A DNA stretch of 64,000 nt, taken from assembly GCA_023974075.1 (NCBI GenBank), contig JAMFTG010000051.1:124001-188000 (forward strand). The letters run 5' to 3'. Both the position numbers and the translations under genes were made by a program. Of the stretch, positions 11,143-60,838 are shown in pieces. Position 1 is the stretch's first letter. Each line of letters starts with the position of its first letter. The DNA comes from Chaenocephalus aceratus (Eukaryota > Chordata > Actinopteri > Perciformes > Channichthyidae). The notes below the pieces were generated by a model that saw only the letters and a program-made list of their open reading frames with translations, was not told the origin of the DNA and made no database searches.

Positions 11143-11191
11143 ATGGACCTGTGTAAAGTGGCTTTCCTCCTGGGAGCCCTGATCTGCTCCG
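11143..11191 (+). CDS. signal-peptide exon of the kringle gene
   Basis: The ATG at 11143 opens 16 codons plus one base: a short MDLCK n-region, the hydrophobic run [10 protein letters not shown], then Ser and a split codon at a GTAAGA donor. The length (49 nt) and phase 1 end agree with the first coding exon of human PLG as I know it. Joined to the first array exon it reads CSASDPP, with a plausible signal cleavage near the Ala. It lies between two direct copies of the same hAT element. Expression and the true transcription start are unknown. Confidence 0.65.

Positions 11192-60838: not shown

What the first reader, a model, noticed from the sequence alone, without database searches (positions are those of the whole stretch)
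11143..60838. A fish gene with apolipoprotein(a)-like architecture: about 30 tandem plasminogen-type kringles behind a signal peptide
The sequence shows a signal exon followed by 30 complete two-exon kringles and a 31st half, all in one orientation with compatible splice phases. From established knowledge, apo(a) arose from plasminogen in the Old World primate lineage and separately in hedgehog. A multi-kringle protein in a teleost would be a further convergent origin. Function (lysine-dependent binding, competition with plasminogen, lipoprotein attachment) is inference only.
Basis: partly seen in the sequence, partly recalled or inferred. Interest (0 to 1): 0.92.

Follow-up and report, generated by a model that had tools for sequence, protein, structure and literature searches.

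The report
Antarctic fish apolipoprotein(a)-like kringle gene
A fish that looks like an Antarctic icefish relative carries, beside its normal clot-dissolving plasminogen gene, a cut-down copy in which one plasminogen module was multiplied about thirty times, much as the human heart-risk protein apolipoprotein(a) arose from plasminogen.

Summary
The anatomy is real: a plasminogen (PLG) signal exon (11143) and 30 two-exon kringles plus a 31st first exon (17117-60838), all splice dinucleotides AG/GT. Ten of 30 kringles hold frame-breaking indels in this assembly; a redundant contig shows such errors nearby, so they may be artefacts. Beyond the window the same gene continues with exon B of K31, K32, K5 and three of six protease exons (His57 exon lost), followed by a second K3-array gene and PLG itself, all in tandem. 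The unit is PLG kringle 3, not K4; it groups with Antarctic notothenioid PLG K3 (100/99), and a single origin with the other fish arrays tested is rejected. Two deletions (PAN-K1-K2; K4) made the ancestor. NCBI already calls a 95% identical P. georgianus protein apolipoprotein(a)-like; I found no paper on it. New here: loss of K2 orphans a K3 cysteine, which arrays mostly drop or re-pair, and the last K3 alone keeps an odd cysteine, as one kringle of primate apo(a) does. Likely product: a secreted, catalytically dead, multivalent lysine-binding competitor of plasminogen. Expression and function are untested.

The parts
10987..11142 (+). 156 bp upstream of the signal exon, 97-99% identical to the same stretch before PLG and before the second array gene (putative promoter and 5'UTR)
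11143..11191 (+). Signal-peptide exon of plasminogen type, ends in phase 1, followed by GTAAGA
17117..59913 (+). 30 K3-type kringles, each exon A (163 nt) + intron + exon B (119 nt), repeat length 1332-1561; exon starts and ends are listed
17117..17761 (+). K1, S-type, frame broken by a 1-base deletion in exon A in this assembly
33221..39500 (+). K12-K16, five open kringles in a row
47467..49683 (+). K22-K23, zone with many indels in exons and introns alike, probably poor consensus
60676..60838 (+). K31 exon A; its exon B lies outside the window at C51:195319-195437 (window coordinate = C51 minus 124000)
61050..64000 (.). Tandem-repeat DNA (units of 227, 115, 119 and 190 bp) that fills the start of the long intron of K31; left edge approximate

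Best explanation
This is an apolipoprotein(a)-like paralogue of plasminogen in a fish that groups with Antarctic notothenioids. SHOWN by sequence: a tandem PLG duplicate lost PAN-K1-K2 in one deletion (PLG intron 1 joined to the intron before K3) and K4 in another; both junctions are shared by two neighbouring paralogues. K3, with its introns and minisatellite, was multiplied to 32 copies in this gene; K5 was kept; protease exons 2 (His57), 4 and 5 were lost. INFERRED: the PLG-like upstream block and signal peptide make it a secreted, probably liver-made plasma protein. Its kringles keep most lysine-site residues (D55, D or E57, W62, Y64, R71, W72; but F at 35), so a long string of them should bind exposed lysines on fibrin or cells with high avidity and compete with plasminogen, without protease activity of its own.
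For: Unit nearest to human PLG K3, 118.8 bits against 96.5 for K4; 91.7% to Pogonophryne PLG K3 over 96 columns. K3 tree of 45 rows: window and P. georgianus arrays with Pogonophryne and Trematomus PLG K3, 100/99; one origin with grouper, char and conger arrays rejected, AU p 1.1e-6. Map of three tandem genes, shared deletion junctions, unit 95% identical to the PLG K3 segment including introns. P. georgianus P0122: signal, 17 K3-type kringles, K5, protease remnant without a Pfam Trypsin match. Splice dinucleotides canonical in 61 of 61 exons. K5 against PLG: exon A 3 synonymous and 0 nonsynonymous, exon B 1 and 1. Extra cysteines even in 31 of 31 units. In the 20 open units the lysine-site columns are constant except D or E at 57, one R71H and one F35L (the site numbering is recalled).
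Against: No RNA or protein evidence could be searched. 10 of 30 kringles are frame-broken as assembled, four of them by the same 2-base deletion. No purifying selection is visible in the K3 exons: pN/pS 1.74 among the 20 open units, and 6-11 nonsynonymous against 0-1 synonymous differences to PLG K3 in five units. A repeat-derived insert of about 1 kb ends 156 bp before this signal exon and is absent from the two neighbours. Site 35 changed from R in PLG K3 to F in the array, which could weaken lysine binding.
Confidence: 0.72

Rival explanations
1. A decaying pseudogene. The array expanded by unequal crossing-over as non-functional DNA and is now collecting frameshifts.
For: 10 of 30 kringles frame-broken; the same 2-base deletion in K6, K10, K11 and K17; nonsynonymous excess; insert near the promoter.
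Against: 61 of 61 exons keep AG/GT; no in-frame nonsense substitution in the 20 open units; K5 conserved; extra-cysteine parity 31 of 31, though both sites share one exon; an overlapping contig shows 27 gap openings with 0 mismatches in 4,882 bp and one of them breaks PAN of PLG itself, so frameshifts on this contig can be errors; P. georgianus has an annotated open reading frame through 17 kringles and K5.
Confidence: 0.2
2. A functional secreted multi-kringle protein whose task is not plasminogen competition, for example binding of bacterial or extracellular-matrix lysine-bearing proteins, or a bulk ligand store in cold plasma.
For: Nonsynonymous excess and the change at site 35 fit a changed ligand; K3 arrays recur in fishes of different habits.
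Against: Most lysine-site residues remain; the anatomy repeats that of primate apo(a).
Confidence: 0.3
3. An assembly artefact: collapsed or expanded copies of an ordinary PLG K3.
For: Indel errors and a 5-kb gap on the contig; repeats of this kind are hard to assemble.
Against: Units differ from each other and from PLG K3 by substitutions in exons and introns; two alternating types; the same architecture is annotated independently in P. georgianus; PLG K3 exists separately with its own K2 and K4 neighbours.
Confidence: 0.04

Closest known systems
P. georgianus 'apolipoprotein(a)-like isoform X4' (nr, P0122)
   Same: Signal joined to a K3-type array, then K5, then a protease remnant without the His57 exon; 95% identity over a 1504-aa query
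   Different: 17 K3-type kringles against 32 here; its first 13 kringles read RWEHC, as gene 2 of this genome does
Primate apolipoprotein(a), LPA
   Same: PLG duplicate beside PLG, leading kringles lost, tandem array, K5 kept, protease inactive (PMC7613587 and PMC10487946, passages); one 7-cysteine kringle near the C-terminus (chimpanzee P0124, baboon P0138)
   Different: Array from K4; separate origin; protease inactivated by mutation (passage), here by exon loss
Hedgehog apolipoprotein(a)-like (P0004)
   Same: Kringles nearest PLG K3 in 7 of 7
   Different: PAN kept; extra K3 cysteine lost in 7 of 7 and no linker partner seen; the original papers were not held, so the copy number of the full protein is not compared
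Other fish kringle-array proteins (grouper P0123, char P0126, conger P0014, loach P0121, wrasse P0002)
   Same: PLG kringles multiplied in tandem
   Different: K2-K3 pair arrays (loach, wrasse) or K3 arrays with a protease domain (grouper, char, conger); separate in the K3 tree, but a grouper-notothenioid clade is not rejected (p 0.17)

Membership tests
Apolipoprotein(a) / LPA | Derived from a PLG duplicate and lying next to PLG | tested here: met
   Three tandem genes on C51; PLG signal exon 94 kb beyond the window end
Apolipoprotein(a) / LPA | PAN and leading kringles lost, signal exon joined to the array | tested here: met
   Deletion junction; no PAN hit in window; junction in P0122. In this species the splice itself is inferred
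Apolipoprotein(a) / LPA | Array of K4-type kringles | tested here: not met
   K3-type by score and tree
Apolipoprotein(a) / LPA | K5 followed by an inactive protease region | tested here: met
   K5 C51:205912-206302; protease exons 1, 3 and 6 only, His57 exon not found; inactivity follows from sequence
Apolipoprotein(a) / LPA | One kringle with an unpaired cysteine used for the bond to apoB | tested here: inconclusive
   K32 and P0122 k17 have the K3 extra cysteine without linker partner; no bond can be tested here
Apolipoprotein(a) / LPA | Carried on an apoB lipoprotein in plasma | not testable with these tools
   Needs plasma fractionation
Apolipoprotein(a) / LPA | Common descent with primate LPA after separation from PLG | tested here: not met
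   Array kringles group with Antarctic fish PLG K3; no primate row was in these trees, but K3 against K4 origin and the local PLG donor (95%) exclude orthology
Plasminogen | PAN, K1-K5 and a complete trypsin domain | tested here: not met
   PAN, K1, K2, K4 and three of six protease exons absent
Kringle domain PF00051 | Score over cut-off and six canonical cysteines | tested here: met
   100.6 bits for one unit; 6 or 8 cysteines per unit, the six canonical ones among them, in all 20 open units

The most novel reading that the evidence does not exclude
Apo(a) is a recurrent destination of plasminogen evolution with a predictable chemical step. Removing K2 orphans the K3 cysteine that bonds to it; a lineage must drop it (grouper, char, hedgehog, S-type units here) or grow a new partner in the linker (C-type units here). 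The one odd cysteine left in this gene, in the last K3 before K5, is kept to tether the protein covalently to a partner, possibly an apoB lipoprotein, giving Antarctic fish their own Lp(a).
Probability: 0.2. Interest if true: 0.92.

Novelty: new variant of a known kind. Interest (0 to 1): 0.77.

Why it matters
Lp(a) is a major human cardiovascular risk factor whose normal role is unsettled, and the review passages that I saw name only primates and hedgehogs as bearers. A lineage that rebuilt the same gene anatomy from a different kringle, in cold-water fish close to icefishes, makes the question of what apo(a) is selected for open to comparison. The cysteine pattern is a sequence test of whether such arrays are made as folded proteins, and it names one residue to test for covalent tethering.

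Tried and rejected
K4 origin, as in primate LPA: rejected by score and tree. Array as an internal part of PLG: rejected by the contig map. Hidden PAN or protease exons in the window: none by tblastn with four PLG-family proteins. Rfam and tRNA scans of the window gave 0 matches. Purifying selection inside the array: looked for, not found. Exact species: not identified; the contig number of the C. aceratus paper (3,852, passages of PMC7307600) differs from the 3,032 contigs of G000, which does not settle it. Literature: the listings (20 of 1,349 papers shown) showed no paper on a kringle array in notothenioids or on an apo(a) of fish; PMC10256766 (passages) has no 'kringle', 'plasminogen' or 'apolipoprotein' in its main text. 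The library holds open-licence papers only. Counts that need care: 11 of 102 PLGs were flagged as lacking the K3 cysteine, but the 11 printed stretches all show PC before K or R (my pattern had anchored on the wrong C). In one search two kringles read '?' because they are cut short (last one of T. tibetana, first one of a partial conger record) and were counted as lacking the cysteine.

Full report
OBSERVATION. The window holds, on the + strand only, 31 copies of an exon A (163 nt) and 30 of an exon B (119 nt), alternating from 17117 to 60838. With bounds corrected for K11, K25 and K26, all 61 exons have AG acceptors and GT donors. The signal exon at 11143-11191 ends in phase 1; A runs from phase 1 to 2 and B from 2 to 1, so each kringle is a symmetric module. 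Twenty of 30 kringles are open; ten hold indels that break the frame: K1, 4, 6, 10, 11, 17, 22, 23, 25, 26. One unit scores 100.6 bits for Pfam Kringle.

WHAT LIES AROUND IT. The kringle search of the window's own genome answered once: the window is C51:124001-188000 of an assembly of 1.06 Gb in 3,032 contigs. Twenty stretches were fetched. Map in C51 coordinates, all +. Gene 1: signal 135143; 30 kringles 141117-183913; K31 exon A 184676-184838 and exon B 195319-195437; K32 196201-196363 and 196729-196847; K5 205912-206060 and 206209-206302; protease exon 1 at 206489, exon 3 at 207467, last exon 214845-215006. Gene 2: signal 219514; six K3 kringles 230747-249115; six protease exons 255421-277545. 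Gene 3, PLG: signal 281993; PAN 285312; a gap of 5,000 N at 287501-292500 where K1 should be (contig C2050 carries PAN and K1); K2 293115; K3 297067; K4 303093; K5 305782; six protease exons 306321-312060. Gene 1 is therefore a separate tandem paralogue of PLG.

HOW IT AROSE. In genes 1 and 2 the sequence of PLG intron 1 (up to about 284092-284159) jumps to 296942, just before K3, which removes PAN, K1 and K2; and PLG about 300492 jumps to a repeat that begins about 305079, which removes K4. Both genes have both jumps, so an ancestor with signal, K3, K5 and protease probably existed before they split. Gene 2 then lost K5; gene 1 lost protease exons 2 (with His57), 4 and 5. The unit, with introns and a 37-bp minisatellite, is 95% identical to the PLG K3 segment. 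Units differ more at odd than at even lags (1.42% at lag 1, 1.16% at lag 2; K22 and K23 left out), and types alternate from K15 to K27, which points to spread of a dimer.

RELATIVES. P0122, 'apolipoprotein(a)-like isoform X4 [Pseudochaenichthys georgianus]', 1855 aa, is 95% identical over a query of 16 units; its cluster holds 16 sequences. It has the signal joined to the first kringle, 17 K3-type kringles, K5, and a protease tail without the His57 exon whose last exon is read in another frame than in PLG. Pfam finds 18 kringles and no trypsin domain, besides two spurious families over their cut-offs. Of 23 fish multi-kringle proteins laid out by kringle type (several are isoforms or paralogues of one species), grouper, char and conger have K3-only runs, loaches and wrasse K2-K3 pairs. 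In a K3 tree of 45 rows the window and P. georgianus arrays join Pogonophryne and Trematomus PLG K3 (100/99), with Eleginops, Cottoperca and Perca outside; char arrays join salmonid PLG K3 (100/99); conger arrays lie beside conger PLG K3, the chosen root. One origin of all arrays is rejected (AU p 1.1e-6); grouper with notothenioid is not (p 0.17). Limits: 89 columns, groups named after the first tree had been seen, and gene conversion from PLG could imitate recent origin.

A CYSTEINE RULE. In PLG an extra K2 cysteine pairs with an extra K3 cysteine (PCK); that pairing is recalled. All 102 five-kringle PLGs examined carry both (11 mis-anchored rows read by eye). In the 23 multi-kringle proteins, PCK is kept in 59 of 60 K3 kringles that follow a K2 with its cysteine (the exception is truncated) and in 25 of 70 that do not; of these 25, 14 (all P. 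georgianus) have a linker cysteine and 11 look orphaned, 6 of them in conger and 4 in loaches; 45 lack it, one of them unreadable (Fisher p 1e-15). Kringles of one array are not independent, so that p overstates the case. By lineage, loss or repair is seen in grouper (20 of 20), char (14 of 14), notothenioid, one Betta and one Poecilia paralogue, and hedgehog (7 of 7); conger is mixed and a few loach kringles go against the rule. In the window 16 of 31 units have both extra cysteines and 15 neither; both sites are in exon A, so co-duplication alone would also link them. The last K3, here (K32) and in P0122 (k17), has PCK without a linker cysteine. Chimpanzee apo(a) has one 7-cysteine K4, third from its last kringle, and a baboon record one as well; that this is the apoB-bonding kringle is recalled.

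IS IT INTACT. The assembly errs: C2050 and C51 overlap for 4,882 columns with 0 mismatches and 27 gap openings, and one gap breaks the PAN exon of PLG on C51 while C2050 is open. Against that, another overlap of 5,760 bp has 13 mismatches and one gap. Indels in K22-K23 affect exons and introns alike. The same 2-base deletion in K6, K10, K11 and K17 is harder to dismiss and may be inherited. Selection: K5 against PLG shows 3 synonymous and 0 nonsynonymous differences in exon A, 1 and 1 in exon B; five K3 units show 6-11 nonsynonymous and 0-1 synonymous; pN/pS among the 20 open units is 1.74. This fits change of function or relaxation and shows no constraint on the K3 exons.

HOW IT LIKELY WORKS. 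Inference: upstream block and signal exon almost identical to PLG suggest liver secretion; a long string of kringles with most lysine-site residues binds exposed lysines; there is no catalytic centre; hence a multivalent decoy for plasminogen. The change from R to F at site 35 is the main doubt. Human apo(a) has the same recipe: K1-K3 lost, K4 expanded, K5 kept, protease inactivated, PLG as neighbour (PMC7613587, passages; PMC10487946, passages).

VERDICT. That the fish is an Antarctic notothenioid is inferred; the species was not identified.

Noticed in passing
G000 C51:219514-277545 (loci L012-L017): A second PLG-family gene with six K3 kringles, no K5 found and all six protease exons (activation site reads FVRIVGG): possibly an active multi-K3 plasmin.
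   Followed up: partly
window 10044-10989 and 12208-13190: Two copies (96-100% in matched blocks) of a segment with an ORF that resembles a BED zinc-finger transposon; the first copy ends about 156 bp before the signal exon. The family is a guess by eye.
   Followed up: partly
window 9677-10135, - strand: Open frame that resembles the end of a LINE-type reverse transcriptase, judged by eye only.
   Followed up: no
L025 (C2050:40001-48127) against C51:282634-287500: Redundant contig with zero substitutions but 27 gap openings against C51; it carries the PAN-K1 part that falls into the C51 gap.
   Followed up: yes
P0268, P0272: Grouper scavenger receptor (M130-like) records with kringle domains, 62-71% identical to the query over 4-5% of it.
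   Followed up: no
P0234, P0235: Very long kringle proteins outside vertebrates: sea urchin Diadema setosum, 3274 aa, and an unnamed JGI protein, 3276 aa.
   Followed up: no
B exons of K6, K10, K11, K17 (window 24990, 30779, 32240, 40783): The same 2-base deletion in four kringles of both types, inherited or a systematic consensus error.
   Followed up: partly
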